DNA from: Gloeomargarita lithophora Alchichica-D10
Lineage (GTDB): Bacteria > Cyanobacteriota > Cyanobacteriia > Gloeomargaritales > Gloeomargaritaceae
Length of the DNA stretch: 50,126 nt
Assembly: GCF_001870225.1 (NCBI RefSeq)
Contig: NZ_CP017675.1
Location: 484,776-534,901, forward strand
Direction: 5' to 3'
This document shows, piece by piece, positions 1 through 42,448 of the stretch (positions are counted from its first letter, which is position 1; each line of letters opens with the position of its first letter). The notes beneath the pieces are model-generated. The model was not told the DNA's origin and ran no database searches. It was given only the letters and a program-made list of their open reading frames with translations. Both the position numbers and the translations under genes were made by a program.

Positions 1-96
1 CGCTATTCTAAGTCAGTAGAGATGTTAGGATACTCTATTCGTTTGCTAATTCATTATTTGAAGTTTCAAAAAGTACCTGTTCCTATAGCAATATGA
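1..96 (+). CDS. Possible 3' end of a gene entering from the left edge
   Basis: Frame 1 is open from the first base and stops at TGA 94-96, giving about 31 residues that include MLGYSIRLLIHYLKFQK. The last codons and the stop lie inside the terminal repeat of the MITE-like element that starts at 84, so the element may have supplied a new stop codon. I do not recognise the family, and an open frame of this length can arise by chance. Confidence 0.2.
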   Translation, partial: RYSKSVEMLGYSIRLLIHYLKFQKVPVPIAI

Positions 97-184
97 CACG
101 AGTTACGAACGGAAATTCCGCAGAACCAAGGGCGGGGGATGCCCCCCTGCGACCGCTGTTCTAAATTCAAATAAGATTGCTATA
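84..184 (+). repeat. MITE-like element, copy 1 (101 bp)
   Basis: The element begins TATAGCAAT and ends ATTGCTATA, which are perfect 9-bp terminal inverted repeats. The interior holds a GC-rich stem (GGGCGGGGGATGCCCCCC) followed by CTGCGACC. It has no coding capacity. All 101 bases match the copy at 42348-42448. The outer TA on each side could be a target duplication of the IS630/Tc1 kind, but this is inferred. No transposase that could mobilise it lies in the window. Confidence 0.85.
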
Positions 185-3827: not shown

Positions 3828-3911
3828 GATATAGAAGCCATTTGGTGAACAAAAATTCTGGAGAACCAAGTCCGGGGGCGGTGCCCCTGCGACCTATTTT
3901 TAGAGGTGTCC
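3828..3911 (+). repeat. Diverged MITE-like repeat core
   Basis: GGAGAACCAAG, then a GGGGGCGGTGCCCC stem and TGCGACC, correspond to the interior of the 101-bp element at 84-184. The ends are diverged, with only a GATATAG-like left end. It lies between the convergent ends of tgt and the TPR gene, whose 205-bp gap holds nothing else that I recognise. Confidence 0.55.
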
Positions 3912-16379: not shown

Positions 16380-19300
16380 ATGATTTTTTCTATTTCTAAT
16401 TTTTTCATCCGCCGCCCGGTTTTTGCGACGGTCTTATCCCTGGTGATTGTAATTGTGGGAGCGGCCTGTATTCCCACCCTGCCCGTGGCGCAATACCCTG
16501 ATGTTACGCCGCCGCAAATTGTGGTGACCTCCCGCTATGTGGGAGCCAATGCGGAAGTGGTAGAATCTACCGTGACCAATATCTTAGAACGGGAATTAAA
16601 TGGTATAGATGGCCTGCGGTTTATGAAATCCACCAGTGCCAATGATGGGACAAGTAATATCACCCTGACCTTCGATTTAGACCGCAATCAGGATATTGTG
16701 GCAACGGATGTACAAAATCGGGTTTCCACCGTCCAACCCCGCCTACCGGATTTGGTCAATCGCACCGGCATTCAAGTGACTAAAGCTAATAGTAGTTTTT
16801 TGTTAGCAATTGGTCTTTATGCCGAGCCGGATCAAACCGGCAAAGACCGCTACGATGATGTGTATTTAAGCAACTACGCTGACCTGTATATTACGGATGC
16901 GTTGAAACGGATTAAAGGGGTGGAAAGTGTGCAAATTTTTGGCGAACGTCAGTATGCCATGCGGATTTGGCTTGACCCCTTAAAATTAGCCGGTCGTACC
17001 CTGACTCCCCAGGATGTGGTACAGGCGATTCAGGCACAAAACTTGCAGGTGGGGGCGGGGCAAATTGGTCAACCACCGGTGCCTGGGGAACAGCAATACC
17101 AATACTCGGTCACCGCCCAGGGACGGTTGAATAATGCCGAGGAATTTGCCAATTTGGTGATTCGCACCGAAGCGAATGGTTCCCTGACGCGCTTAAAAGA
17201 TGTGGCACGGGTGGAATTGGGGGCGGAAAATTACAGTTCCATTTTGCGGTTTACCTCTGACGATAAGGTGTCCCACCGGGGGGTGGGTTTGGGCATTCGG
17301 CAACAGTTGGGCAGTAATGCCTTGAATGTGGCCAAACAGGTCAAAACCCAGATGCAGGAATTGCAAAAGAGTTTTCCGCCAGGAATGAAGTATGAGATTG
17401 CTTTTGATACCACTTTGTTTATAGAAGCGGGTACTCAAGAGGTGCTTGTTTCCCTGCTGTTGGCGATTGTTTTGGTGGTGGCAATTATCTTCTTGTTTTT
17501 ACAAAATTGGCGTTCGGCATTGATTACTACCATTGCCATTCCCGTTGCCCTGGTGGGTACATTTATCTTCGTCAAAATATTCGGTTTTTCGATTAACACA
17601 TTAACCCTATTTGGTTTAACCTTAGCTACGGGGTTGGTGGTGGACGATGCCATTGTCATTGTGGAGGATATTACCAAAAGAATCCAAGAGGATGGCATGG
17701 CTCCCTTACCGGCGGCGATGGCTTCGATGGATGCGCTTTTGGGAGCGGTGATTGCCACGTCTATTGTTCTCATTACGGTGTTTGTGCCGGTGGCATTTTT
17801 ACCCGGAACTACGGGGCAACTCTACCGTCAATTTGCCTTAACGATTGCGTTTGCGATTACGATTTCCACCTTTAATGCGATCACCTTAACCCCGACCCTT
17901 TCGGCTTTACTGATCCGTTCTGGGCAGGTTCCCGACCATTGGTTTTTCCAGCGCACCAACCAAGTGATTGAATCTATCCGTAGCAACTACGGGCAAAGTA
18001 TTCAGCGGGTGGTCAATAAAAAGAATTTAATTTTAGGGGCATTTGTGGTGGCATTGCTTCTCACCTATGGGATTTATAATCTCATGCCCAAAGCCTTTTT
18101 ACCCGATGAAGACCAGGGTTATTTTATTACCATTGTGCAAGCTCCCGAAGGGGTGTCTTTGGGTTATACAGAAAAAGTGCTGGAACAGGCTGAAAATATA
18201 TTAAAAAAGCAACCGGAAATTCGTAATATATTTGCCGTTGGGGGATTTAGTTTTAGCGGAGCAGTTCCCAATCAAGGTTTGATTTTTGCCACCATGCGTC
18301 CCTGGTCTGAGCGTCCCCGCCCGGAGCAATCGGTGAATGGGGTAATCGGTGGTTTTTTCCCTCCACCAGCACGGGGATTATTTCCGCAGTTGCTCAGCAT
18401 ACAAGAAGCGGTGGTGATTCCTTTTGCCCCCCCGCCGATTAATGGCATTGGTAATTTTGGTGGGTTTGAATTTCATCTCCAAGACCGGCTTGGTTCAGGA
18501 TTAAAAACCTTGGGGGAAACCCTAGGGCAATTTTTGGGACGAGCCGAGACTTTTCCTACGGCTGACCGACCGACTTTATCCCGTTTGCGAGCGGATTTTA
18601 GCGGTAATACCCCGCAAATTCAGGTGCAGGTGGATCGGGAACGGGCGAATGCCTTGGGGATAAATGTTGCGGACATTTTTGATACCCTGCAAACCCTGCT
18701 CGGTTCTACCTACGTCAATGATTTTAATCAATTTCAAAGGACGTATCGGGTCTATGTGCAAGCGGATGGTCAATTCCGCACCAATCCCGATAATATCAAT
18801 CAATTTTATGTCCGTTCCCGTAACAACCAAATGATTTCCTTGGGTAATTTGGTAACTATTAGTCAAACGACTGCTCCTTCGGTGATTAGTCACTACAATC
18901 TGTTCCGTTCGGTGGAAATCAATGGGGTAGCGAGCCAAGGTAAATCTTCGGGGCAGGCGATTGATGCGTTAGAAGCGGTGGCGCAAGAAACCTTACCCCG
19001 GGGTTTTGGTTATGAATGGTCGGGATTATCCCTAGAAGAAATTGAATCATCAGGGCAGGCGATTTGGATTTTCGCCCTGGGGGTGGTTTTTGTGTTTTTA
19101 ACCCTGGCGGCTCAGTACGAAAACTATGTTGATCCGTTAATTATCATGCTGACGGTGCCGTTGGCCGTATTGGGGGCATTGATTGCCGTATTTGTGCGGG
19201 GATTAACCATTGATGTTTACACCCAAATTGGCTTTGTAATGTTGATTGGTATGGCGAGTAAAAATGCCATTTTGATTGTAGAATTTGCTAACCAATTGGT

Positions 19301-19577
19301 GGCGGAAGGCTTGGGCATTACCAAAGCAGTCTTGGAAGCCTGTCGGGATCGTTTGCGCCCGATTTTGATGACGGTGCTATCAACCTTGATTGGGGCGTTT
19401 CCCTTGTGGATTGCTACGGGGGCGGGGGCGGCAGCACGGCGTTCCCTCGGCACCTGTATCGTTGGCGGTATGGGTATTGCCAGTGTGCTGAGTTTATTTA
19501 TTGTACCTGTGCTATACATTGTCATTAAAAATCTGGAAGCTCATTTTCGCAAAGGGTCTTCCTCTGGAATGGTTTAG
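16380..19577 (+). CDS. RND efflux transporter, HAE1 (AcrB-like) family
   Basis: A protein of 1065 residues, the full AcrB size. Twelve membrane helices and two large periplasmic loops. Proton-relay aspartates are in GLVVDDAIVIVEDI near residue 420 and the relay lysine in MASKNAILIVEFANQL near residue 960. The N-terminus FFIRRPVFATVLSLVI is standard. The gene lies 21 bases after the adaptor gene in the same operon under PadR. It should export hydrophobic compounds by proton antiport; substrates are unknown. Confidence 0.95.
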   Translation: MIFSISNFFIRRPVFATVLSLVIVIVGAACIPTLPVAQYPDVTPPQIVVTSRYVGANAEVVESTVTNILERELNGIDGLRFMKSTSANDGTSNITLTFDLDRNQDIVATDVQNRVSTVQPRLPDLVNRTGIQVTKANSSFLLAIGLYAEPDQTGKDRYDDVYLSNYADLYITDALKRIKGVESVQIFGERQYAMRIWLDPLKLAGRTLTPQDVVQAIQAQNLQVGAGQIGQPPVPGEQQYQYSVTAQGRLNNAEEFANLVIRTEANGSLTRLKDVARVELGAENYSSILRFTSDDKVSHRGVGLGIRQQLGSNALNVAKQVKTQMQELQKSFPPGMKYEIAFDTTLFIEAGTQEVLVSLLLAIVLVVAIIFLFLQNWRSALITTIAIPVALVGTFIFVKIFGFSINTLTLFGLTLATGLVVDDAIVIVEDITKRIQEDGMAPLPAAMASMDALLGAVIATSIVLITVFVPVAFLPGTTGQLYRQFALTIAFAITISTFNAITLTPTLSALLIRSGQVPDHWFFQRTNQVIESIRSNYGQSIQRVVNKKNLILGAFVVALLLTYGIYNLMPKAFLPDEDQGYFITIVQAPEGVSLGYTEKVLEQAENILKKQPEIRNIFAVGGFSFSGAVPNQGLIFATMRPWSERPRPEQSVNGVIGGFFPPPARGLFPQLLSIQEAVVIPFAPPPINGIGNFGGFEFHLQDRLGSGLKTLGETLGQFLGRAETFPTADRPTLSRLRADFSGNTPQIQVQVDRERANALGINVADIFDTLQTLLGSTYVNDFNQFQRTYRVYVQADGQFRTNPDNINQFYVRSRNNQMISLGNLVTISQTTAPSVISHYNLFRSVEINGVASQGKSSGQAIDALEAVAQETLPRGFGYEWSGLSLEEIESSGQAIWIFALGVVFVFLTLAAQYENYVDPLIIMLTVPLAVLGALIAVFVRGLTIDVYTQIGFVMLIGMASKNAILIVEFANQLVAEGLGITKAVLEACRDRLRPILMTVLSTLIGAFPLWIATGAGAAARRSLGTCIVGGMGIASVLSLFIVPVLYIVIKNLEAHFRKGSSSGMV

Positions 19578-19602: not shown

Positions 19603-19674
<72 letters not shown>

Positions 19675-19784
19675 TATACGTCACAATTCATAGGTATTCA
19701 TACCGTCCCACTCACCCCGGTACAGCCTAGCTTTTGCCCCTAGCACTCATTCCTTAATGTCCCACAAAACACCGGGATAACCCG

Positions 19785-19838: not shown

Positions 19839-21035
19839 ATGGGTAAAGGTTTGACTGACACGGCAATACGGGCGGTGCGGAAGGTGGACAAGATTACCCG
19901 CCTATGGGACAGTGCGGGGTTATACCTGGAGGTCATGCCCGAAGGCGGCAAGCGGTGGCGGGTCAAGTATTTTTTTGAAGGGCGAGAGTGTCGGCTATCA
20001 GTCGGGATTTATCCTGAAGTGTCCCTGAAACGAGCTAGGGAACGCCGGGACGCAATCCGGGAAAAAGTGGCGCAAGGTATAAACCCTAGTGTTGAGCGCA
20101 GGGCGGTGAAACAATCTGCCATGAGGCAAGCCGAAACGGTCGAGGCTATAGGCCGGGAATGGTTGTTAAAAAAATCAAATACGATTGCCCCGTCCCATTC
20201 GAGAACTATCGAACAACGATTGCAAAATGATATATTCCCCCACCTTGGAGATTGCCCGATTTCAGAGGTAACAGCCCAAGAATTGCTGAAAACCTTACGA
20301 ATAGTGGAAGGACGGGGCGCATTGGAAACCGCCCATAGGGAACTGAATTACTTATCGCAAATTTGGCGTTACGCCGTTGCAACGGGAAGGGTCACCCATG
20401 ACGTTACCTATTCCCTCAGGGGCGCATTGCCCCCGGTGAAACACGAACATTTTGCCGCCGTCACCGACCCGCCAGAATTGGGCAAATACCTGTCAATGTT
20501 TGACGCTTACCCCGGTGGCGTGATCGTCAGGGCGGGTTTGCGTATCACCCCCCATGTTTTTGTACGCCCAGGTGAACTGAGAACCGCTCGCTGGGTTGAT
20601 ATTGACCTGGAAAATTCAGAATGGCGGTACACCGTGACTAAAACCGATAGCCAGCATATTGTTCCTTTGAGTAGGCAGGTTAAGGAATTATTCCAGGAAT
20701 TATTACCCATAACCGGACGGTTTGAATATGTATTTACAAGTTTTAGAAATAAGAACCAACCTATTAGCAATATGGCCTTGAATGCGGCCTTAAAAAACAT
20801 GGGCATATCCTCAGATATTATGACCGCCCACGGTTTTAGGGCAACCGCTAGGACACTGCTAGACGAGGTTCTAGGCTTCCGTATTGACTTAATAGAACAC
20901 CAATTAGCCCACAACGTTAAAGACCCGCTAGGAAGGGCATATAACCGGACTCAATTTCTAAAAGAGCGTCATATTCTCATGCAGAAATGGAGTGATTACC
21001 TAGACGAATTAAAGGTGAAATATGGGCAATTCTAA
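19839..21035 (+). CDS. P4-type tyrosine recombinase (integrase)
   Basis: A protein of 398 residues. The N-terminal DUF4102-type arm-binding domain is visible (LTDTAIRAVRK...LWDSAGLYLEVMPEGGKRWRVKYFF...LSVGIYPEVSLKRARERRD). The catalytic domain shows Arg in RPGELRTARW near 242, His-x-x-Arg in TAHGFRATART near 331, a second histidine in LIEHQLAH, and the nucleophile Tyr in LGRAYNRT near 368. It would catalyse integration and excision at the tRNA-Val att core 160 bp away. The next gene overlaps its end by 14 bases. Confidence 0.95.
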   Translation: MGKGLTDTAIRAVRKVDKITRLWDSAGLYLEVMPEGGKRWRVKYFFEGRECRLSVGIYPEVSLKRARERRDAIREKVAQGINPSVERRAVKQSAMRQAETVEAIGREWLLKKSNTIAPSHSRTIEQRLQNDIFPHLGDCPISEVTAQELLKTLRIVEGRGALETAHRELNYLSQIWRYAVATGRVTHDVTYSLRGALPPVKHEHFAAVTDPPELGKYLSMFDAYPGGVIVRAGLRITPHVFVRPGELRTARWVDIDLENSEWRYTVTKTDSQHIVPLSRQVKELFQELLPITGRFEYVFTSFRNKNQPISNMALNAALKNMGISSDIMTAHGFRATARTLLDEVLGFRIDLIEHQLAHNVKDPLGRAYNRTQFLKERHILMQKWSDYLDELKVKYGQF

Positions 21036-22810: not shown

Positions 22811-25800
22811 ATGAATATCGTACCAAGTGCAAGCATTGACAGTACAGCGGCAATACAGCACCTAACCCTGTTAGGTTACCAGACGGGCGATACAGTCCAC
22901 CTAAGATTTTTACCAGGTAAAGGCTACAACTTGCCTGCAATTTGCAGAAATTACCCTTTAAGGGCAATTCCCTGGGGTGAAGTCGAGAGCTACCAAAGCC
23001 GGGGTTATGGTGTGTATATTGGCGTGAATGGCGGCGACCGAGACGCAGATATTACCCACGGTCGATCTCTATTTATCGAGTGGGACGATTGCCCCAAGCC
23101 GGAGCAGTGGGAGCGACTGCGAGACCTGGAAGGGCGGGGATTCCCCGCACCGACATTCACAATTGAGAGCCGCCGGAGTGTTCATACATACTGGGTTTTA
23201 CCAGAACCCTTGCCGGTTGAGACGTGGCGAGCGTTGCAAGCGGAACTGCTCAGACTGACCGGTGCAGACCCCACTATTAAGAATCCCAGCCGTCTAATGC
23301 GGTTGGCCGGTTCCTTGCACGTCATGCAGGGCTTGGAACCCGTGGGGTGTCCCCTACAACTGGGGACGGGGCGACCGGTTACCCCAGGCGAGCTAAAAAG
23401 TGGCCTGCGTCAACTTGCCCCACCGCCCCCACCGAATGATCCACCCCAAATAATAGACAATTCACCACCAGGGAACCCGATAGATTTATCAATTTTTCTA
23501 GCCAAAAATCACCAGGATTTAATTAACACGGGGGCGAAAACGGGTTCACGGAATGGCCGTGGCTATGCCCTAGCTTGCGATCTAATCGGTGTGGATTCAT
23601 GGCTCAAAAATTTACGCTTCTCACCCTCTCCAAGTGCCTATGAGCTATTCACAACCTATTGCCAACATTGCCCTAGCGGTGACGGGTGGGACAGTGCCGA
23701 ATGGGATAAAATCTGGCAATCCGCCGCTAATTCTATGCCCAAACCATGCTGTAGTGACAGCGTACTAACAGCACGATTGAAGCGAATTATGGGGGATAAT
23801 GACGAGCCGGAAGGTGAGAAAACAAGCAAGAAGTCAGTCGCTAAATTGTTGATCGGTATTGCCCAAAACGAATGCGACTTATGGCAATCAGACACGGGCG
23901 AGGGTTGGGCTGATATTCTAATCGAGGGAATTAGACATTCTCACCCCTTGAGAAGTGGTCGTTTTAGGAAGTGGCTGGCAGGGCGGCTATGGGCTGACCA
24001 TGAGCTACCCTCGAACTCCGAGGCCATGCAATCATGCCTAACGGTTTTGGAAAGTTTCACCGAATTTGGGGGACTACCAAAACGTAAGGTCTTTTTACGG
24101 GTGGGTGAGCTTGAGGGGTACATATATTTGGACGTTGCCAACGAGCAGAATCAACTTATTGAGGTATCGCCTGCTGGGTGGCGGGTGATTGAATCCACCG
24201 ATTGTCCCGTCCGCTTTGAGCGGTGCGACACTCAAGAACCGCTACCCTTGCCCGTGGCCGGGGGTGACCTTAGCAAGTTGTGGGAAATTATCCCCGTTGC
24301 AACGGGTTACCGGGAAATGGTGCTGGCATGGGAAGCATTTACCCTGATTCCCGCCGGGGCGAAACCAGTACTGACCCTGCACGGTGCCAAAGGTGCGGGG
24401 AAGTCCACCACCGCCAAGTTGCTAAAGCGATTGATTGATCCTGGCAAGGCCGACCTACTGAACCGGGTTGGTGACGGTCAAACCATTGCCACCAATGCCC
24501 GCAGGCGGTTAATTCTTGCCTATGACAACTTGAGTCATTTAACCGCCAGCGAGCAAGACGCTATGTGCCGGGTGAGTACGGGGGGGAGCTTCACCGCCCG
24601 GAAACTATACACCGATCTTGACGACATTTTTTATGAGTTCACCCGCCCACAAATCCTAACCTCGGTGGATTGCATACCAACCCGGAGCGACTTGTTAGAC
24701 CGTTGCCTATTGGTACAAGTCGAGCGAATAGACGAATCTTTGCGCTTGCCCGAAGGTGAGCTATGGCGCAAACTTAACGAGCTTGCCCCGGAATTGTTGG
24801 GGGGATTGCTTGACTTGGTAGCCGCCGGTTTACGCAACCTATCCACTGTCAACGAGCGATTACCTCGTATGGCTGACTTTGCCAAATTTGGGATAGCCGC
24901 CCTAGGGCAAGAATTTATCACCGCCTACCGGGACAATATCGCAACAGCCCAAAATGTTGCAATTGAGAGCAACCCCGTGGCTAGTGCGATCTGCGAATTG
25001 GTGGCTGGGGCAACCTTCGAGGGCACCGCTACCCAACTGCTAACCAAACTCCAAGCCCTGAGCGATTGCCCCAAAATCGCCAAACTAACCAGCCGTGCCC
25101 TGGGGCGAATGCTCAGTAGCAAGGCGTTTGTGCAGGATTTATTTGCCGCCGGGGTGTCGGTGGATTCCTACCGGAAGGCCGGGGGTAAAGAACGGGGCTG
25201 GATCATTTCAAACAATCCCCCACCAGAAAATCCACAACCACCGCCAGGGGATAAACCGCCACCACCGAATGATCCACCACCCCCTGTGACATTTACCACT
25301 GAAAAAAGCTCCTTGGTCTCGTTTGAAGAGTCGAAGGGTGAAACTTTTTTTAACGGGGACGTGACAGCAGATAAACACCAAAAAATAATGTCACAAATGT
25401 CACAAACGTCACAAGCCCGTCAGGGAGCGGATTCTAGCTGTGACATTATCCAGACGGGGAAAACCGATAATGTCACAACCCAGCCCGATAATGTCACAAC
25501 CCCACAGGGAGCAGAACCGGATAATGTCACAAGCCCCGATAATGTCACAAAAACGTCACAGCTAGAACCCCGTCATAGTGCGGGTTGTGACATTAGTGAC
25601 ATTTGTGACATTATTCAAACCCCCTTATCTGGTGTCAGTCCACCCGAATTGAAAAAAGTTACCCCATTTGACTTTCCAAACGAGACCAAGCAACAAAAAT
25701 CGGTGGCAAATGTCACGCCTTTTATGGTGGATTTTGTGCCGGGCGACTTGGTGGTTTATCGGGGGGACGTGCCAGAAATCAAAGCCCTATGGCCTGAACC

Positions 25801-26584: not shown

Positions 26585-26617
26585 TTTAACCTCCAAAGTG
26601 TAGGGTTTAACGTTGTA
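26585..26617 (-). repeat. 33-bp leader repeat, copy inside the element
   Basis: These 33 bases, containing the ribosome-binding site of the annealing-protein gene, are identical to 29260-29292 outside the element. The match begins TTTAACCTCCAAAG and ends TTTAACGTTGTA (plus-strand reading). The outside copy is taken as a relic of a related element. Confidence 0.8.
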
Positions 26618-26668
26618 CAAACAATGTTTACAAACCCCGCCTATCAAGGGACGGGCGGGGCATTGTAC

Positions 26669-28238: not shown

Positions 28239-28252
28239 CAGTATCGCCCATA
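28239..28252 (+). other. attR core of the integrative element
   Basis: CAGTATCGCCCATA, identical to 19663-19676. The flanks differ on both sides, so the common core is exactly 14 bp. It marks the right end of the element. Confidence 0.85.
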
Positions 28253-28325
28253 CGAGTTTTGACCCTTTTGGTTCGTGTTTTACGGGACTCTCTTGTAAGT
28301 ATGGGATGGGTATGGTTGGGGTTAA

Positions 28326-28631
28326 TTGGGGCGGTTTAGGGCTGAAATTGGGCTACATAATTTTGAGCCACAATCATGTCCCGTGAATGGGTCAAGCTGG
28401 AAGGGAAGCCTCTCCCTGTGGGCGGTGGATGAGATGCTGGTACTGCGGTGGCGGTATCAAGCCAATCGGTTTTCCCTTGCCCTCAGCTTGCCGGACACCA
28501 CTGCGAATCGGAAGCAAGCCAAAAAAATGGCAAATGAGATTGAACGGGATGTAGCCGCCTCTGTCTTTGATGTCAACCTGGTCAAATACCGCCCGGAACC
28601 CATCGTTGCCCCCGTAGCCCAAAATGTATAG
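28326..28631 (+). pseudogene. N-terminal fragment of a tyrosine integrase
   Basis: The frame gives about 101 residues. WKGSLSLWAVDEMLVLRWRYQANRFSLALSLPDTTANRKQAKKMANEIERDV, then a DVNLVKYRP tail, matches the arm-binding N-terminus of many phage integrases (pattern LRWRYxGxRxxLxLGLPDTxxNRKxAxxxAxxIExDI). The core and catalytic domains are missing. It lies 74 bp outside attR in the orientation expected for an integrase reading away from the att site. It is a different type from the intact integrase. Best read as the relic of an earlier element at the same tRNA. Confidence 0.7.
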
Positions 28632-28706
28632 CCCTACTGGATTTGGTTAGGACATATAAATGAGTTTGGCAACCTTACATGATTGTGCTGATGCTGCTTT
28701 TGTCAC

Positions 28707-28737
28707 TTGTCCTAAGGTTAGTGCGTAGTGCTATAAT
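28707..28737 (+). promoter_or_regulatory. Promoter of the DUF29 gene
   Basis: TTGTCC (28707-28712), a 19-base spacer and perfect TATAAT (28732-28737) with an upstream TG, making an extended -10. It lies about 85 bases before ATG 28822. Confidence 0.55.
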
Positions 28738-28821
28738 TCCCATTGCAATAGGATACCGGCAAACGGTGTTGGCATGGTTGGTAAGATGGTTGTAAAGCAG
28801 AATTTATTCTATTAGGGTTTC

Positions 28822-29250
28822 ATGGAAGAACTAATGACCTTGAGGAACTACCTACTCGCAGGGGACATCACCTCAGCCTTAACCCTTGTGGATGAGATGG
28901 AAGAGATGAGCAAAGATGACAAGATCAGCAACATTGCTAGCTACGCTGTAATACTCCTATTGCATCTCATCAAGCAACAAATAGAACAGCGTACTACTAA
29001 GTCTTGGGATGTCTCAATCCGCAATTCTGTCAGGCACATTAATCGTAAAAATAAACGCCGTAATGCTGGGGGATATTACCTCACTCAATATGAACTGCTA
29101 AGCAGTCTTCAAGAAGTATTTAATGATGCAATAGATCAGGCATCCCTAGAAGTGGCTAATGATAGTTATGACTCCGAACAGTTGTCAGCATTAGTGGATA
29201 GAAAAGCCATCATTGATAAAGCTATGAGCTTAATCGTCAATGACCTGTAA
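28822..29250 (+). CDS. DUF29-family protein
   Basis: A protein of 142 residues. LLLHLIKQQIEQRTTKSWDVSIRNSVRHINR corresponds to the LLxHLLKWxYQPExRxxSWRxTIRxxR core of DUF29, a family abundant in cyanobacteria and of unknown function. It differs clearly from the three DUF29 copies at 38338-39698, so it is not a recent duplicate. It sits between the integrase relic and the 33-bp relic repeat and may be cargo of the decayed older element. Confidence 0.7.
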   Translation: MEELMTLRNYLLAGDITSALTLVDEMEEMSKDDKISNIASYAVILLLHLIKQQIEQRTTKSWDVSIRNSVRHINRKNKRRNAGGYYLTQYELLSSLQEVFNDAIDQASLEVANDSYDSEQLSALVDRKAIIDKAMSLIVNDL

Positions 29251-29259
29251 CTCATGGGT

Positions 29260-29292
29260 TTTAACCTCCAAAGTGTAGGGTTTAACGTTGTA
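29260..29292 (-). repeat. 33-bp leader repeat, copy outside the element
   Basis: Identical over 33 bases to the leader of the Rad52-like gene at 26585-26617. Here no annealing gene follows: the minus-strand ATG at 29254 runs backwards into the DUF29 gene. This marks the edge of a deleted, related element. Confidence 0.75.
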
Positions 29293-29332
29293 TAAACCTT
29301 GCAGATAACCTGCCTACCAAACGGCAACGGCT

Positions 29333-31462
29333 TTAAGCAATCGGTTGCCCATCCAGACGGCGAATCGCCACCACCGCTGGTTTCGGGGGTGCATTGGGCG
29401 CACCGGCAGGCCAGTTGGAACCCTGGGGCACCACCCGCTCCTGCATAAACCGGTCACCGTCCTTATTCACCATGCGGACTTCCAGGGTGCGCTTCGCCCC
29501 ATCTTTGCGAATGCTCCCCGCCTCGCCGGGATGTTGCACCGCCAGAAAGAGGGTTTTGCGGTCATCGCTGAGATAAGGGCCGGTCAGTTCGCACTCCATT
29601 GGGCCAAGGGCAAAAAGAAAAGCCTGCCCCGCCTGCGCCCCCCGGGTGGGGATAAACCACATGGAATTGTTGCCAAAACGCCCGGTTCCCGGCATCGCCG
29701 CCGGATTATTCAAACGGCTGGTTGACATATCCGTGACCATCCACAAATCCCCCGCCGGGTCAACCATTAGGTTATCCGGGTTGGCAAACCCACCCCCATC
29801 CAGATTCGCTTCGCCCCCGGTGGCGACCATCTTCCAGGTGAATGCCATCGCCGTGGGTTCACTATTTTGCTCTTGCAACGCCATGATCCAACCCGGTTCG
29901 TAGGATTTTTGGTTATACGGCCCGACAAAAATCCGCTCATCGGGACCACCGTCTTGACTGCTGGGACTACCAGATGTAAAAGCAATGTACAGCGTCCCAT
30001 CCGGGGCAATTTTGGTATCTTCCGGGCGAGCGGTGCAGGTGGCTCCGGCGGCATTGGCGGCGTAGTGGGCATCAATCAAAATCGCCCCCTGCTGTTCTTC
30101 CCGGCTACCCGTGTATAAATCCCCCAGGGTTTTGTACTGTTGCTTGTACTGCTCTACCTCGCTGGTTTTGGTCACCGGCGCAAAGCCCCCCGCAGGCCGC
30201 TTGGGTAGGGTGATCATCCCCCCGGCGTGGACTTCCGGCAAATCCGGGTTGACTGGGCTATCGGGGGTAAGGGCAAGCCACCGCCCCGTGCCATCGGGGT
30301 TAAACTTGGCCGCATAGAGCAACCCCTGCGCCAACAAACGGGAATTGGCTTTATCCTGGGGGTCACGCACCGCCTCCCGGCTGACAAATTTGTACAGATG
30401 GCCGCCCCGCCGGTCACAGCCGGAGTAAAACGCCAGGGGTTTCCCCGCCACCACCCGTATCCCCACCGCCTCATGGCGAAACCGCCCCAGCCAGGTATGC
30501 TTGGTGCCCTTGTCCTGGGGATTGGCCGGGTCAACCTCCACGATCCAACCGTACTTGTTCCCCGCTAACCCCAGGGCACTGCCATGCCCCGCCAATTCCC
30601 CATCCGCAATCGTAAAAGGCCGGGTTCCCGGGGCAAAAGACGTGCCATCGCCATAAACCGGCTCCGCCACCAAATACTGAAAATTCTCCTCCGCACTCAA
30701 CACCGTCCCCCAAGGCGTTGTCCCCCCGGCGCAGTTGCCAAAGGTGCCGATGATCTTGGTGCCCAAATTGTCCATGTACCCCTGCCCCTGGGTTTTGCGG
30801 AAAATCAACGTCCCCGGCCCAGTCGCCCCCAAATAATTCCCATCCCGCCAGCCCGAAATCCCGGAAATGCGCCGGTCTGCCGCACCGGGGGACTTCACCC
30901 AGCGATTCCCCTCCTGGCGAATGGTCATCACGCCAATCCCCAAATCCTCCAAGGCGGCCACCACAATTTGCTCAATTTGCGCCTTCAAAGGGTTATCACC
31001 TGCCATGCCATAGGCATCCACCGGACCCGTTTCCAGGGCTTTTTGGACGGCCATAAACGGTAAATCTGTCCCCAACACTGCCCCATAGGTTTGCATCCAG
31101 GTGCGGGCACTGATGTACTCAAAATTGATAGTCAAATACCCTTGATTTGCACCACTGGCAATAAAAGATAAATAATCGTTGTTATATCCCAACCGGCTAT
31201 TACCTAAACTATCGCCCCAACTGGCAATCACCTCATAGGTATAACCTTCCGGTAGCACCAATTCATCCCGAATTTCCACCTGGCGATAGGCGTTTTTCTG
31301 TTGCTCTGCCGTCAACCCATCCGTGGGTAGGGGCATCACCCCCCGCAATGGCGAAAATTTCAAGTTGGTCGGTTTCGCCGCCTGGGTTGCCCCGGTTCCC
31401 CAAGCTACCGCACCCCAACCACTGGCTAAAAACAACAACGCTTCCCGCCGGGTAATACGCAT
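29333..31462 (-). CDS. phoX: PhoX-family alkaline phosphatase (DUF839)
   Basis: A protein of 709 residues from ATG 31462 with AGGAAA upstream; an in-frame start eight codons earlier is less likely. The N-terminus MRITRREALLFLASGWGAVAWG has a twin-arginine signal, so the folded enzyme is exported. DUF839 features: LSAEENFQYL, GRFRHEAVG, FYSGCDRRGGHLYKFVS, RPEDTKIAPDGTLYIAFTSG, GGFANPDNLMVDPAGDLWMVTDM. PhoX enzymes use calcium and iron and release phosphate from organic esters. An upstream Pho-box-like repeat supports phosphate control. Confidence 0.92.
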   Translation of the reverse strand: MRITRREALLFLASGWGAVAWGTGATQAAKPTNLKFSPLRGVMPLPTDGLTAEQQKNAYRQVEIRDELVLPEGYTYEVIASWGDSLGNSRLGYNNDYLSFIASGANQGYLTINFEYISARTWMQTYGAVLGTDLPFMAVQKALETGPVDAYGMAGDNPLKAQIEQIVVAALEDLGIGVMTIRQEGNRWVKSPGAADRRISGISGWRDGNYLGATGPGTLIFRKTQGQGYMDNLGTKIIGTFGNCAGGTTPWGTVLSAEENFQYLVAEPVYGDGTSFAPGTRPFTIADGELAGHGSALGLAGNKYGWIVEVDPANPQDKGTKHTWLGRFRHEAVGIRVVAGKPLAFYSGCDRRGGHLYKFVSREAVRDPQDKANSRLLAQGLLYAAKFNPDGTGRWLALTPDSPVNPDLPEVHAGGMITLPKRPAGGFAPVTKTSEVEQYKQQYKTLGDLYTGSREEQQGAILIDAHYAANAAGATCTARPEDTKIAPDGTLYIAFTSGSPSSQDGGPDERIFVGPYNQKSYEPGWIMALQEQNSEPTAMAFTWKMVATGGEANLDGGGFANPDNLMVDPAGDLWMVTDMSTSRLNNPAAMPGTGRFGNNSMWFIPTRGAQAGQAFLFALGPMECELTGPYLSDDRKTLFLAVQHPGEAGSIRKDGAKRTLEVRMVNKDGDRFMQERVVPQGSNWPAGAPNAPPKPAVVAIRRLDGQPIA

Positions 31463-31494
31463 GGTTTCCTGTCTCAGAGAAGGCACACTACCGC

Positions 31495-36775: not shown

Positions 36776-38341
36776 CTAGGGTAAACAAGATAACAAATGA
36801 TCCCCGACTCGCAGGGCATTGGCAACAATCGTCAAAGTCGGGTTGACGGCGGCACTGGATGGGAAAAAACTGCCATCCACCACATACAAATTATCCACCG
36901 CATGGGTACGGCAATGGACATCTAACACGGAAGTATTGGGGTCAGTGCCAAACCGACAGGTGCCACATTGATGCCCCACCGCCTGCACCGGCACCTGGTT
37001 GCGGGGATAAATGCCAAAAGGAATCGCATTTTCCGAGCGATCCACCTGCTTCAAAACCTCAATCCACCGCTGGACTAAACGGTGTGCCGCCGGGAGATTG
37101 TTGGGTTGATAATGCAAGGTAATCCGGTCATTTTGTAACGTCACTCGATTTTCCGGGTCGGGTAAATCCTCGGTCTGCAACCACCAGCCCACCGTATGGT
37201 CTGCCACCGCTTTCAATTCCGCATTGGGACGCAGTTTTAATAAAGGTGCTAATAACGCCGGAGCTTCGGCGGGGAGCATATCCGGCAGGACATTACCCGT
37301 ATTTTGAATCAGACCCATCGGGTAGGGAAAATCCGATTCCCCCCAATAAAAATCGCTGACGGCCAGGGTTTTTTGATAAATATCGTGGTTAGGCGTGAGG
37401 CTAAGTTGCACCAGGGCAGTACAGACGTGTTTCATCAAATTGCGCCCCACCAGCCCGGAACCGTTCGCCAGCCCCTGGGGATGCCGGTCATTGGCCGAAC
37501 GCAACAGCAATGCCGCCGAATTGATCGCCCCGCAGGCCACCACCACCACCGCCCCGGTGAAGGTATGAATTTCCCCGTGCATCGCCACTTCCACCCGCTC
37601 CACCCGCGTCCCCTGGGGATTGGTGAGCAGACGGGTCACCTGGGCATTGACCAGCAGGGTAATGTTTTCCTGATGGCGAATCGGTTGAATGCCATTCACC
37701 TCCCCATCCGCCTTGCCCTGGGTGAGACAGGGAAAGCCATCGCAGGTATCACAGCGGATGCACGCCCCCAGGGTTTTGTCCACCTCATTGAGTTTCAGAC
37801 CCAAGGGCAAAGGAAAGGGATGCAGGCCAATGTGCTGTAAATGCTCAGACAACTGTTGCATTCGGGGTTCATGGCGCACCGGCGGGTAAGGGTAGGGGGC
37901 ACTGCGCCAGGGTTCGGTCTGGTCGTGACCGGCGACCCCGTGCACATCGTAAAGGGCTTCCGCCTGTTGATAATAGGGTTCAAAATCGCTATACGCCAGC
38001 GGCCACGCCGGGGAAATCCCATCCTGATGCGCCACTTCTTGAAAATCCCGTTCCCGCAGGCGAAACAGAGCCGCCCCATAGACCTTGGTATTGCCCCCCA
38101 CATAATAGGAAGTCGCCGGTCGAAAAGTGTGTCCCTGATGGTCTTGCCACTGTTCCTCGGTGTGATAACGCTCTTTTTGATATACCTCTAGGGCACTCCA
38201 ATTAGCTTTTTCCCTGGGCAAAAAATCCCCCCGCTCCAGGATCAAAATGCGTTTGCCACTGGGGGCGAGCCGATGGGCAAGGGTACTCCCGCCCGCCCCG
38301 GTGCCGATAATAATCACATCAAAATCGTTAGGGATAGTCAT
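36776..38341 (-). CDS. GMC-family FAD oxidoreductase, copy B
   Basis: A protein of 521 residues. FAD-binding motif DVIIIGTGAGGSTLAHRLAPSGKRILILERGDFLP at the N-terminus, and the C-terminal GMC block with HQCGTCRFGTDPNTSVLDVHCRTHAVDNLYVVDGSFFPSSAAVNPTLTI. A Cys-rich stretch CIRCDTCDGFPC lies near residue 190. GMC enzymes oxidise sugars or alcohols. Paralogue of the gene at 39717. Its ATG overlaps the stop of the DUF29 gene before it. Confidence 0.92.
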   Translation of the reverse strand: MTIPNDFDVIIIGTGAGGSTLAHRLAPSGKRILILERGDFLPREKANWSALEVYQKERYHTEEQWQDHQGHTFRPATSYYVGGNTKVYGAALFRLRERDFQEVAHQDGISPAWPLAYSDFEPYYQQAEALYDVHGVAGHDQTEPWRSAPYPYPPVRHEPRMQQLSEHLQHIGLHPFPLPLGLKLNEVDKTLGACIRCDTCDGFPCLTQGKADGEVNGIQPIRHQENITLLVNAQVTRLLTNPQGTRVERVEVAMHGEIHTFTGAVVVVACGAINSAALLLRSANDRHPQGLANGSGLVGRNLMKHVCTALVQLSLTPNHDIYQKTLAVSDFYWGESDFPYPMGLIQNTGNVLPDMLPAEAPALLAPLLKLRPNAELKAVADHTVGWWLQTEDLPDPENRVTLQNDRITLHYQPNNLPAAHRLVQRWIEVLKQVDRSENAIPFGIYPRNQVPVQAVGHQCGTCRFGTDPNTSVLDVHCRTHAVDNLYVVDGSFFPSSAAVNPTLTIVANALRVGDHLLSCLP

Positions 38342-38790
38342 GGTTGGGGGAGTTCGAGGGGTTCGTCAAAAATTTGGGTATCAGAAAAAGGGCATGATTG
38401 CGGTAATTGTTCTGGATCAAGGGGAGTTTCCCGGTCTATCAAACTCAATCCATTCTCATAGCCAATTTCTAATGCTTCACTAAAATAAGATTTAAGGCTA
38501 GGATTCTTTTTCAGATGCCGTTGAATTTCTTTTCTTTGCTCTCGAATGGTGGCTCGCCAACTTTTACTACGTTTTTCGGGTTGATAGTGCCATTTTAGCA
38601 AATGCCCCAATAATATACCCAGGCGATTTTCTAGTTCCTGCTCCTGTTGTTTTCCCAAGGATGTGATCTCCTCAACTAAATTGGCAATATCCAGTTGATT
38701 AAATTGCTGGGATGCTAATAGTTGTGCCTGGGTCGCCGTCCACGCATAAAAGTCTGCATCGTATAGGTGCGTTTGGGGTGGTTTGTGCAT
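38338..38790 (-). CDS. DUF29-family protein, tandem copy 3
   Basis: A protein of 150 residues. DADFYAWTATQAQLLASQQFNQLDIANLVEEITSLGKQQEQELENRLGILLGHLLKWHYQPEKRSKSWRATI is a full DUF29 domain. Last of three tandem copies, four bases after the stop of copy 2 and overlapping the GMC gene by ATGA. It shares about 150 bases with copy 2 with a single difference. Function unknown; the tight coupling to the oxidoreductases suggests a role with them. Confidence 0.85.
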   Translation of the reverse strand: MHKPPQTHLYDADFYAWTATQAQLLASQQFNQLDIANLVEEITSLGKQQEQELENRLGILLGHLLKWHYQPEKRSKSWRATIREQRKEIQRHLKKNPSLKSYFSEALEIGYENGLSLIDRETPLDPEQLPQSCPFSDTQIFDEPLELPQP

Positions 38791-38794
38791 TATA

Positions 38795-39244
38795 TCATTG
38801 GGGAAGTTCTAGGGGTTCTTCAAAAATTTGGGTATCAGAAAAAGGACAAGATTGAGGTAATTGTTCTGGATCAAGGGGAGTTTCTTGGTCAATCAACCCC
38901 AATCCCTTTCGATAACCAATTTCAATGGCTTTTCTAAGATAGGGCTTCAAGCTGGGATTTTTTTGCAAATGAATTTGAATTTCACTCCTTTGTACTCGCA
39001 CAGTAGCCCGCCAACTTTTACACCGTTTTTCGGGTTGATAGTGCCATTTTAGCAAATGCCCCAATAATATACCCAGGCGATTTTCCAGTTCCTGCTCCTG
39101 TTGTTTTCCCAAGGATGTGATCTCCTCAACTAAATTGGCAATATCCAGTTGATTAAATTGCTGGGATGCTAATAGTTTCGCCTGGGTAGCTGTCCAAGCA
39201 TAAAAATCTGCATCGTATAGGTGTGTTTGGGGTAGTTTGTCCAT
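38795..39244 (-). CDS. DUF29-family protein, tandem copy 2
   Basis: A protein of 149 residues from ATG 39244. The longer frame upstream to 39373 is the reading-frame shadow of copy 1 and is rejected because MDKLPQTHLYDADFYAW aligns with the starts of its sister genes. Its central part is almost identical to copy 3, which points to recent duplication or gene conversion; ends differ more (VQRSEIQIHLQKNPSLKPYLRKAIEIGY). Confidence 0.85.
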   Translation of the reverse strand: MDKLPQTHLYDADFYAWTATQAKLLASQQFNQLDIANLVEEITSLGKQQEQELENRLGILLGHLLKWHYQPEKRCKSWRATVRVQRSEIQIHLQKNPSLKPYLRKAIEIGYRKGLGLIDQETPLDPEQLPQSCPFSDTQIFEEPLELPQ

Positions 39245-39248
39245 TATA

Positions 39249-39698
39249 TTATTGGGGAAGTTCCAGGAGTTCTTCAAAAATTTGCGCCTGGGAAAAGGGA
39301 CATTCTTGAGGTAATTGTTTTGGGTTAAGAGGTGTTTCTTTCCCAACCAATCGCAATCCATCTGCATAACCAATTTCTAATGCTTCATTAAAATAAGACT
39401 TAAGGCTGGGATTTTTTTTGAGCAAACGATTGATTCTACTGCGCTGTTCGTCAATAGTATAAAACCAACTTTTACACCGTTTTTCGGGTTGATAATACCA
39501 TTTTAGCAAATGCCCCAATAATACCCCCAGGCGATTTTCCAATTCCTGCTCCTGTTGTTTTCCCAAGGATGTGATCTCCTCAACTAAATTGGCAATATCC
39601 AGTTGATGAAATTGCTGGGATGCTAATAGGTTTGCTTGGGTGGTTGTCCAAGCGTAAAAGTCTGCATTGTAAAGGTTAGTCTGCGACGGTTTCAACAT
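39249..39698 (-). CDS. DUF29-family protein, tandem copy 1
   Basis: A protein of 149 residues from ATG 39698; a GTG four codons earlier is possible. The most diverged of the three (YNADFYAWTTTQANLLASQQFHQLD; SWFYTIDEQRSRINRLLKKNPSLKSYF). It lies 18 bases after the GMC copy A stop and 4 bases before copy 2. DUF29 has no assigned biochemical function. Confidence 0.85.
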   Translation of the reverse strand: MLKPSQTNLYNADFYAWTTTQANLLASQQFHQLDIANLVEEITSLGKQQEQELENRLGVLLGHLLKWYYQPEKRCKSWFYTIDEQRSRINRLLKKNPSLKSYFNEALEIGYADGLRLVGKETPLNPKQLPQECPFSQAQIFEELLELPQ

Positions 39699-39716
39699 CA
39701 GATTTATCACCCCTAT

Positions 39717-41309
39717 TTACCCCAAACGTTCCAACAAATGATCCGCCACCCGCAGAGCATTGGCAATAATCGTTAAAGTCGGATTGACCGCCCCGCTAGA
39801 AGGGAAAAAACCGCCATCCACCACATATAAATTATCCACCTCATGGGTACGGCAATGGGTATCTAATACGGAAGTATTGGGGTCATCGCCAAACCGACAG
39901 GTGCCCACCTGATGCGCCACATTATCCACCCCCATTTTGCTGGCAAAGTAGGACTTAACGGGTTCAGGAGCATCGCAGTCCGGGCGGCGGCAGGTGCGGT
40001 CAAAGTAGGACGGATGGGGAAAGAGATTTTCGGCGGCACCAATGCTCTGCAAAAGTTCCACCCAACGATGTTCCAAGCGTTGAAATGGCTCCGTATTATT
40101 TTCCTGGTACTGCATGAGAATTTTGTCCCCATTAACCATAATCCGGTTGTTGGGGTCGGGGATGTCCTCGGTGGTCAGCCACCAGTCCGTGGAATGCTCC
40201 GCCACCTGCGCCGGGGTCAAGGGGGCATAGGGAGCCGGATTCAAGGACAGGGCATCGGCATTCACCTTACCGGTGGTTTGAATTTGCCCCATCGGGTACT
40301 CGTAGCCCGGTTCGCCCCAGTAAAAATCATTGATGGAAAGGGTTTTTTGAAATACGGTGGGATTCAATTCCCGACTGACCGCCAGGATGGAACCCAAAAC
40401 GTGTTTCATCAGATTGCGTCCCACCAGGCCGGAACCGTTGGCAAGGCCGTTGGGGTGGGCATCACTAGCAGATTTCAGCAGTACCACCGCCGAATTTACC
40501 GCCCCGCAACTAAGGGCGACTACATCCCCGGTAAAGAGCCGTTTTTCCCCCTGCACCTCCGCCTCCACCCCAGTTACCTCCCGCCCGGAGAGACTCGTGT
40601 GCAGTTGCACCACCTTGGCGTGGGTGAGTAGGGTCACATTGTCCTGCCCCATGATGGGACGTACCGCCGTCACTTCCGCATCGGATTTTGCCCCCACCAA
40701 ACAGGGAAACCCATCGCAGGTGTCACACCGGATGCAATCGCTCAGGTACATTTGCGCCGCATTCAAACGCACCCCCACCGGCGTGTAGTAGGGACGCAAC
40801 CCCTGGGCATTTAAGGCATCGCTAATTTCCTGAATCCGGGGTTCATGGCGGATGGCGGGGTAGGGATAATCGCTACTGCGCGGGGGTTCCGTCGGGTCAA
40901 TCCCCCACTGCCCATGCACCTGGTACAACTGCTCCGCCTGGGTGTAGTACGGTTCAAATACACTGTAGGGCAACGGCCACGCCGGAGATAGCCCGTCTTT
41001 GTGAGCATACGCCTGAAAATCCCGTTCCCGCAGGCGAAACAATGCCGCCCCGTAGAGCTTGGTATTGCCGCCCACAAAATAACCCATCCCCGGATGCAAT
41101 TCCTTGCCCTGGGGGTCGTACCACACCTCGCTACCGAAATAACGGTGGGTGCCAAAGACGATTTTGGCTAACCAATTTTCCTTTTCCCTAGGCAAAAAAC
41201 CGCCCCGCTCCAACAGCAATACCCGTTTACCCTGGGTCGCCAACCGGTAGGCCAAGGTGCCACCCCCCGCCCCCGACCCGACGACGATCACATCGTAATG
41301 GTCAGCCAT
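39717..41309 (-). CDS. GMC-family FAD oxidoreductase, copy A
   Basis: A protein of 530 residues. The N-terminal DVIVVGSGAGGGTLAYRLATQGKRVLLLERGGFLP binds FAD. C-terminal HQVGTCRFGDDPNTSVLDTHCRTHEVDNLYVVDGGFFPSSGAVNPTLTI is the GMC signature region. It has the same CIRCDTCDGFPC stretch as copy B and an insertion (YFDRTCRRPDCDAPEPVKSYFASK) near the C-terminus that copy B lacks. Copy A and copy B flank the three DUF29 genes. It is 78 bp downstream of the glucose-dehydrogenase-like SDR gene. Confidence 0.92.
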   Translation of the reverse strand: MADHYDVIVVGSGAGGGTLAYRLATQGKRVLLLERGGFLPREKENWLAKIVFGTHRYFGSEVWYDPQGKELHPGMGYFVGGNTKLYGAALFRLRERDFQAYAHKDGLSPAWPLPYSVFEPYYTQAEQLYQVHGQWGIDPTEPPRSSDYPYPAIRHEPRIQEISDALNAQGLRPYYTPVGVRLNAAQMYLSDCIRCDTCDGFPCLVGAKSDAEVTAVRPIMGQDNVTLLTHAKVVQLHTSLSGREVTGVEAEVQGEKRLFTGDVVALSCGAVNSAVVLLKSASDAHPNGLANGSGLVGRNLMKHVLGSILAVSRELNPTVFQKTLSINDFYWGEPGYEYPMGQIQTTGKVNADALSLNPAPYAPLTPAQVAEHSTDWWLTTEDIPDPNNRIMVNGDKILMQYQENNTEPFQRLEHRWVELLQSIGAAENLFPHPSYFDRTCRRPDCDAPEPVKSYFASKMGVDNVAHQVGTCRFGDDPNTSVLDTHCRTHEVDNLYVVDGGFFPSSGAVNPTLTIIANALRVADHLLERLG

Positions 41310-42288: not shown

Positions 42289-42347
42289 CAGCCACCGGAC
42301 ATCTCAGGGCATTCTTAATTTTTTTGTAATTTTTGCGATGGATTCTC

Positions 42348-42448
42348 TATAGCAATATGACACGAGTTACGAACGGAAATTCCGCAGAACCAAGGGCGGG
42401 GGATGCCCCCCTGCGACCGCTGTTCTAAATTCAAATAAGATTGCTATA
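42348..42448 (+). repeat. MITE-like element, copy 2 (101 bp)
   Basis: Identical at all 101 positions to 84-184, including both 9-bp ends TATAGCAAT and ATTGCTATA. The flanks differ, so the ends of the mobile unit are well defined. It occupies the gap upstream of the sugar operon; the rest of the 417-bp gap holds the palindromic repeat at 42505 and no gene. Confidence 0.88.

What the first reader, a model, noticed from the sequence alone, without database searches (positions are those of the whole stretch)
28253..29300. Relics of an older element next to attR
Directly outside attR lie an integrase N-terminal fragment of a different type, a DUF29 gene with a strong promoter, and 33 bases identical to the leader of the annealing-protein gene inside the element. 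The exact 33-bp match shows the older element was related to the present one. Successive integrations at one tRNA (accretion) followed by decay would explain it, and the DUF29 gene may be cargo left behind.
Basis: partly seen in the sequence, partly recalled or inferred. Interest (0 to 1): 0.68.

Follow-up and report, generated by a model that had tools for sequence, protein, structure and literature searches.

The report
Stacked mobile-element relic at tRNA-Val
Beside a small mobile element parked in a tRNA gene of a cyanobacterium lie the broken remains of an earlier, related element that used the same tRNA, which is a well-documented kind of genome layering rather than a new system; the protein gene caught between the remains is a common cyanobacterial gene, not shown to be the element's cargo.

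Summary
Outside the 14-bp attR (28239-28252) lie: the left end and N-terminus of an Arm-DNA-bind_2 tyrosine integrase (the resident enzyme is Arm-DNA-bind_3); an intact DUF29 gene under purifying selection; and a leader fragment with 33 exact bases (38 bp at 97%) of the annealing-gene leader.

Comparison within the genus supports accretion. Two sister genomes (G002, G004) lack the resident element and carry the same left-end relic directly after tRNA-Val, so they show the site as it was before the present integration. Four other species have ordinary genes there. Intact elements joining this integrase type with this leader exist in this genome (tRNA-Arg), in G002 (tRNA-Gly) and, with a diverged leader, in G004 (tRNA-Thr). 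The same layering recurs at tRNA-Ala in the sister genomes. The leader has only three copies in the genome, all element-related.

Not supported: DUF29 as cargo. In G004 its ortholog sits alone between two chromosomal genes that are adjacent in four other species. No element examined carries DUF29, and 80 cyanobacterial relatives have no integrase nearby. The right half (DUF29, leader, phoX) is probably a deletion or rearrangement scar. This is a new example of a known process.

The parts
19603..19674 (+). tRNA-Val (CAC), the integration target; acrB upstream (16380-19577) is in synteny in all 7 genus genomes
19663..19676 (.). attL core CAGTATCGCCCATA of the resident element
19839..21035 (+). 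resident integrase, Arm-DNA-bind_3 type, complete
26585..26622 (-). leader of the Rad52-like annealing gene in the resident element, source of the match
28239..28252 (.). attR core of the resident element; sisters G002/G004 continue CATACG as here, so this junction is the former tRNA-to-old-element junction
28253..28376 (.). left end (att-to-integrase segment) of the older element; homologous sequence follows tRNA-Val in G002 and G004 and, more distantly, tRNA-Ala in G004
28377..28631 (+). pseudogene fragment of an Arm-DNA-bind_2 integrase N-terminus (start MSREWVKLE, frameshift, Arm domain to KYRPEP); catalytic part missing
28632..28814 (.). spacer without a relative among fetched loci; extended -10 TGCTATAAT at 28729-28737
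28822..29250 (+). intact DUF29 gene (142 aa); close ortholog in G004 only among the genus genomes
29246..29316 (-). relic of the annealing-gene leader: degraded hairpin, promoter-like segment, Shine-Dalgarno and former start codon (29253-29255); gene body missing; 38-bp block 29260-29297
29333..31486 (-). phoX-like chromosomal gene, conserved in the genus with different neighbours in most genomes; right edge of the relic

Best explanation
28253-29316 is decayed remains of an earlier tRNA-Val element, displaced to the right when the resident element integrated at the tRNA end. An element with an Arm-DNA-bind_2 integrase inserted into the 3' end of tRNA-Val and rebuilt the tRNA end. It then lost its catalytic integrase domain, its middle genes and its own right att site (shown by absence). 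A second element of the same family, with an Arm-DNA-bind_3 integrase but the same annealing-gene module, later recombined at the reconstituted tRNA end. That placed its attR against the old left end (shown by comparison with the sister genomes). The leader fragment is what is left of the old element's annealing-gene region, or of a related element's, cut near the third codon of that gene. DUF29 is a host-type single gene that ended up in the gap through deletion or rearrangement (inferred); it is still under selection. The relic itself has no mobile function now, and only the DUF29 gene is likely to be active.
For: Empty site plus relic in G002 and G004: tRNA-Val continues directly into homologs of 28253-28408 without the resident element. 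G002 keeps the integrase start, and G004 keeps the Arm-domain end FDVILAKYRPEP at the same locus. The stretch is absent after tRNA-Val in G001, G003, G005 and G006. Integrase type 2 together with the leader in intact elements: this genome at tRNA-Arg, G002 at tRNA-Gly(CCC), G004 at tRNA-Thr (diverged leader). Type 3 together with the leader: resident element and the G002 elements. The leader faces the same way relative to the tRNA as in the resident element. The leader has only 3 copies in 3.05 Mb. Replicate: G004 tRNA-Ala has the relic alone, and in G002 an Arm-DNA-bind_3 element has the tRNA-Ala core plus that relic beyond its right end. A further integrase N-terminal remnant lies at tRNA-Pro in this genome.
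Against: The old element's own attR is not found, so its right border is unproven, and the leader could come from a second element brought in by rearrangement. Phylogenetic signal in about 130 bp is weak. The left end differs from G002/G004 by about 25%, against 49% at fourfold sites of acrB, which fits a later, independent integration better than inheritance of neutral junk since the species split. The tRNA-Arg element has masked stretches.
Confidence: 0.85

Rival explanations
1. One reading: DUF29 was cargo of the older element and survived its decay, so the whole 28253-29316 block is one element shrunk by internal deletions.
For: DUF29 lies between two element remnants in the expected order and orientation. 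It is sporadic in the genus (close ortholog in 2 of 7 genomes). It is less diverged from its G004 ortholog at synonymous sites than the other genes compared: pS 0.34 against pooled 0.51, Fisher p 0.003. This is compatible with horizontal arrival.
Against: No DUF29 in the element loci examined by phmmer, although the tRNA-Arg element has masked parts. In G004 DUF29 is a lone insertion between kinase and EamA genes, with no integrase. 80 cyanobacterial relatives show no integrase of this kind within the fetched flanks of up to 4 kb and only 5 have a tRNA in the stretch. No match in phages or viral contigs, and one plasmid.
Confidence: 0.2
2. The block is a composite scar. The left part is the old tRNA-Val element, and the leader-phoX part comes from a different element joined by recombination between element copies, with DUF29 caught at the junction.
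For: Genes after tRNA-Val and next to phoX differ widely between the genus genomes. In G002 two near-identical elements at tRNA-Ala and tmRNA have swapped right att cores and flanks, direct evidence of element-mediated rearrangement. The C-terminal codons of DUF29 diverge from G004 right at the leader junction.
Against: No reciprocal junction was found in this genome; one old element with deletions needs fewer events.
Confidence: 0.35
3. 28253-28408 is ordinary chromosomal sequence downstream of tRNA-Val.
For: It is present after tRNA-Val in G000 (displaced), G002 and G004.
Against: Absent in the other four genus genomes. A homolog follows a different tRNA (Ala) in G004, and the segment runs into integrase codons.
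Confidence: 0.03
4. The 33-bp match is a dispersed host repeat or a common regulatory site.
For: It has a promoter-like and Shine-Dalgarno character.
Against: Three exact copies in the genome, two of them in elements and one the relic, with no hit for the reversed control pattern. Genus-wide the other copies sit upstream of element genes.
Confidence: 0.03

Closest known systems
Site-specific tandem accretion of integrative elements (ICE/IME/CIME model; review PMC5704250)
   Same: Decayed older element and a younger one stacked at one tRNA end, distantly related integrases, shared att core, decay of the older one.
   Different: The older element keeps only its left end and fragments and has no detectable second att of its own. 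No conjugation genes were recognised in the genes examined.
Arm-DNA-bind_2 (PF12167) tyrosine integrases
   Same: N-terminal arm-binding domain in the relic; full-length relatives at tRNA-Arg, tRNA-Thr and tRNA-Gly in the genus.
   Different: Relic lacks core-binding and catalytic domains and is frameshifted.
DUF29 (PF01724) family of cyanobacteria
   Same: Family match above the Pfam gathering score; 54-64% identical relatives in many cyanobacteria.
   Different: Nothing different except location next to element remains and a slightly altered C-terminus.
Tycheposons and other cyanobacterial tRNA-borne small elements (from general knowledge, not compared here)
   Same: Tyrosine integrase, tRNA 3' end target, replication gene, small size.
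   Different: No sequence comparison made; membership not claimed.

Membership tests
Tandem accretion at a tRNA | Younger element flanked by direct repeats of the target end | tested here: met
   14-bp CAGTATCGCCCATA at both ends, only two copies in the genome
Tandem accretion at a tRNA | Pre-insertion site (target plus older element only) seen in relatives | tested here: met
   G002 and G004 tRNA-Val
Tandem accretion at a tRNA | Older element also inserted at the same target end with its own integrase | tested here: met
   Integrase start follows the tRNA end by about 125 bp in G002; Arm-domain end in G004
CIME (decayed element keeping both att sites) | attL and attR of the old element both retained | tested here: not met
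   No further copy of the att core
Arm-DNA-bind_2 integrase | Profile match above curated cutoff | tested here: met
   35.8 bits against 22, fragment only
Arm-DNA-bind_2 integrase | Catalytic domain of a tyrosine recombinase | tested here: not met
   Fragment stops after the Arm domain
DUF29 | Profile match above curated cutoff | tested here: met
   32.7 bits against 22.5
Mobile-element cargo (DUF29) | Found inside intact elements or linked to integrases | tested here: not met
Tycheposon-like element | Sequence homology to described tycheposon core genes | not tested
   no reference sequences were compared

The most novel reading that the evidence does not exclude
In this genus a pool of small elements that share a replication/annealing module but switch between two integrase types overwrites the same tRNA sites again and again, and recombination between their copies reshuffles the chromosome, so that element scars mark the synteny breakpoints. 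DUF29 would be a single-gene passenger dropped at such breakpoints.
Probability: 0.25. Interest if true: 0.5.

Novelty: new member of a known kind. Interest (0 to 1): 0.3.

Why it matters
It gives a clean case of layered integration, checked against sister genomes, in a cyanobacterial genus (name inferred, probably Gloeomargarita) for which my literature searches turned up no work on such elements. It also offers a handle on why gene order is so fluid there: the att letters of two element copies in a sister genome show that they swapped flanks.

Tried and rejected
DUF29 as phage cargo: no relatives in viral contigs or phage records, one plasmid. DUF29 linked to tRNA genes or integrases in 80 cyanobacterial loci: none with an integrase of this kind, 5 with a tRNA; the integrase profile recovers held-out members, so it is sensitive within this family. 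HEPN link for DUF29: the passages found mention DUF294, not DUF29. Known RNA in the region: none. Leader in viral contigs: none. Relatives of the 28632-28814 spacer: none among fetched loci. A missing right att of the old element: not found.

Full report
Setting. The window is bases 484776-534901 of a single 3,049,282-bp contig. Its relatives G001-G006 are of the same genus. From memory the size fits Gloeomargarita lithophora, but this was not verified. The resident element lies between two copies of CAGTATCGCCCATA, at the 3' end of tRNA-Val(CAC) (19663-19676) and at 28239-28252. No other copy with up to one mismatch exists in the genome.

What lies outside attR. The reading frame 28329-28628 matches Arm-DNA-bind_2 (PF12167), while the resident integrase is Arm-DNA-bind_3 with a catalytic domain. 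Alignment with a homologous relic at tRNA-Ala in G004 shows the same integrase start (M-REWVKLE). In the window a small deletion then shifts the frame before the Arm domain. The DUF29 gene is intact and constrained (dN/dS about 0.16 against G004). The leader match is 33 exact bases and 38 at 97%. Alignment with five element leaders extends it to about 85 nt, with a degraded hairpin on one side and the former start codon on the other. After about the third former codon the annealing gene is gone and the end of DUF29 begins, tail to leader.

Comparative test. acrB-tRNA-Val synteny holds in all seven genus genomes. In G002 and G004 the tRNA is followed directly by homologs of 28253-28408 (78% and 76%), with the continuation CATACG that the window shows only at attR. 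These are pre-insertion sites for the resident element. G002 retains the integrase start; G004 has lost that but retains the end of the Arm domain. G001, G003, G005 and G006 have unrelated sequence there. The stretch is thus acquired, and it was at this site before the resident element arrived in the window genome.

Element family. Intact elements with the Arm-DNA-bind_2 integrase type and the leader occur in this genome at tRNA-Arg (exact leader), in G002 at tRNA-Gly(CCC), and in G004 at tRNA-Thr with a diverged leader. Arm-DNA-bind_3 elements with the same leader are the resident one and two in G002. The integrase type is therefore exchangeable against a shared module (inference), and the relic's combination is a normal one for the family. 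The exact match is equally good to the tRNA-Arg element, so it does not single out the resident element as the closest relative.

A second instance. In G004 tRNA-Ala is followed by the same kind of left-end relic. In G002 an Arm-DNA-bind_3 element occupies tRNA-Ala, and a close copy (99.9% identical over its left 3.9 kb) occupies tmRNA. The copy at tmRNA has the tRNA-Ala core plus the tRNA-Ala relic at its right end, and the copy at tRNA-Ala has the tmRNA core. The simplest reading is that the layering also happened at tRNA-Ala and that the two copies later recombined, swapping their right flanks. This is an inference from the att letters, but a direct one.

Age. Between G000 and G002/G004 the left end differs by about 25%, while fourfold sites in acrB differ by 49%. 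Between G002 and G004 the figures are about 22% and 25%. The relics in G002 and G004 fit inheritance from their ancestor. The one in the window fits a later arrival, or an element that stayed alive longer. The segment is short and may have been constrained, so this is weak.

DUF29. Its only close ortholog in the genus is in G004, between a kinase and an EamA transporter that are neighbours without DUF29 in G001, G003, G005 and G006 and are separated in G000 and G002. Homology between the two DUF29 copies is confined to the gene. None of the element loci examined carries one. Among 80 relatives in other cyanobacteria no integrase of this kind lies within the fetched flanks. Synonymous divergence is lower than in the other genes compared (p 0.003), which allows horizontal exchange but does not tie it to this element. 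Cargo is possible but unsupported; capture at a rearrangement or deletion junction is at least as likely.

Right border. phoX ends 36 bp beyond the 38-bp leader block. Its neighbours differ widely between genus genomes, and no att copy marks an end of the old element. The relic is therefore truncated on the right by deletion or rearrangement, and it cannot be excised by a site-specific route (inference).

Verdict. Accretion plus decay: supported. Cargo: not supported. Known process, new example. Precedent for the scenario, including decayed elements stacked with younger ones carrying distant integrases, is reviewed in PMC5704250.

Noticed in passing
L045:1935-11180 and L046:9730-19290 (sister genome G002): Two closely related elements at tRNA-Ala and tmRNA have exchanged right att cores and flanks, implying recombination between copies in inverted orientation (a large inversion).
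   Followed up: partly
L048:9806-12900 (G004, tRNA-Ala): An integrase left-end relic sits between tRNA-Ala and what look like CRISPR repeats followed by cas-like genes.
   Followed up: no
L097:7224-7691 and L095:7883-9094 (own genome): A truncated Arm-DNA-bind_2-type integrase beside tRNA-Pro, and a full-length integrase beside tRNA-Thr followed by transposase-like fragments instead of element genes.
   Followed up: partly
L004:3685-16784 (own genome, tRNA-Arg): Related element with phage-like genes (Mu F-like, terminase-small-like, RusA-like by eye); parts are masked as N.
   Followed up: no
window 25286-25716: Cluster of ATAATGTCACAA-type direct and inverted repeats inside the 3' part of the large primase/helicase-like gene, possibly iterons.
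   Followed up: no
window 36776-41309: Tandemly duplicated gene region with copies about 66-86% identical.
   Followed up: no
window 83-184 and 42347-42448: Exact 102-bp repeat, part of a dispersed repeat family also seen near 3849, 50018 and in sister genomes.
   Followed up: no
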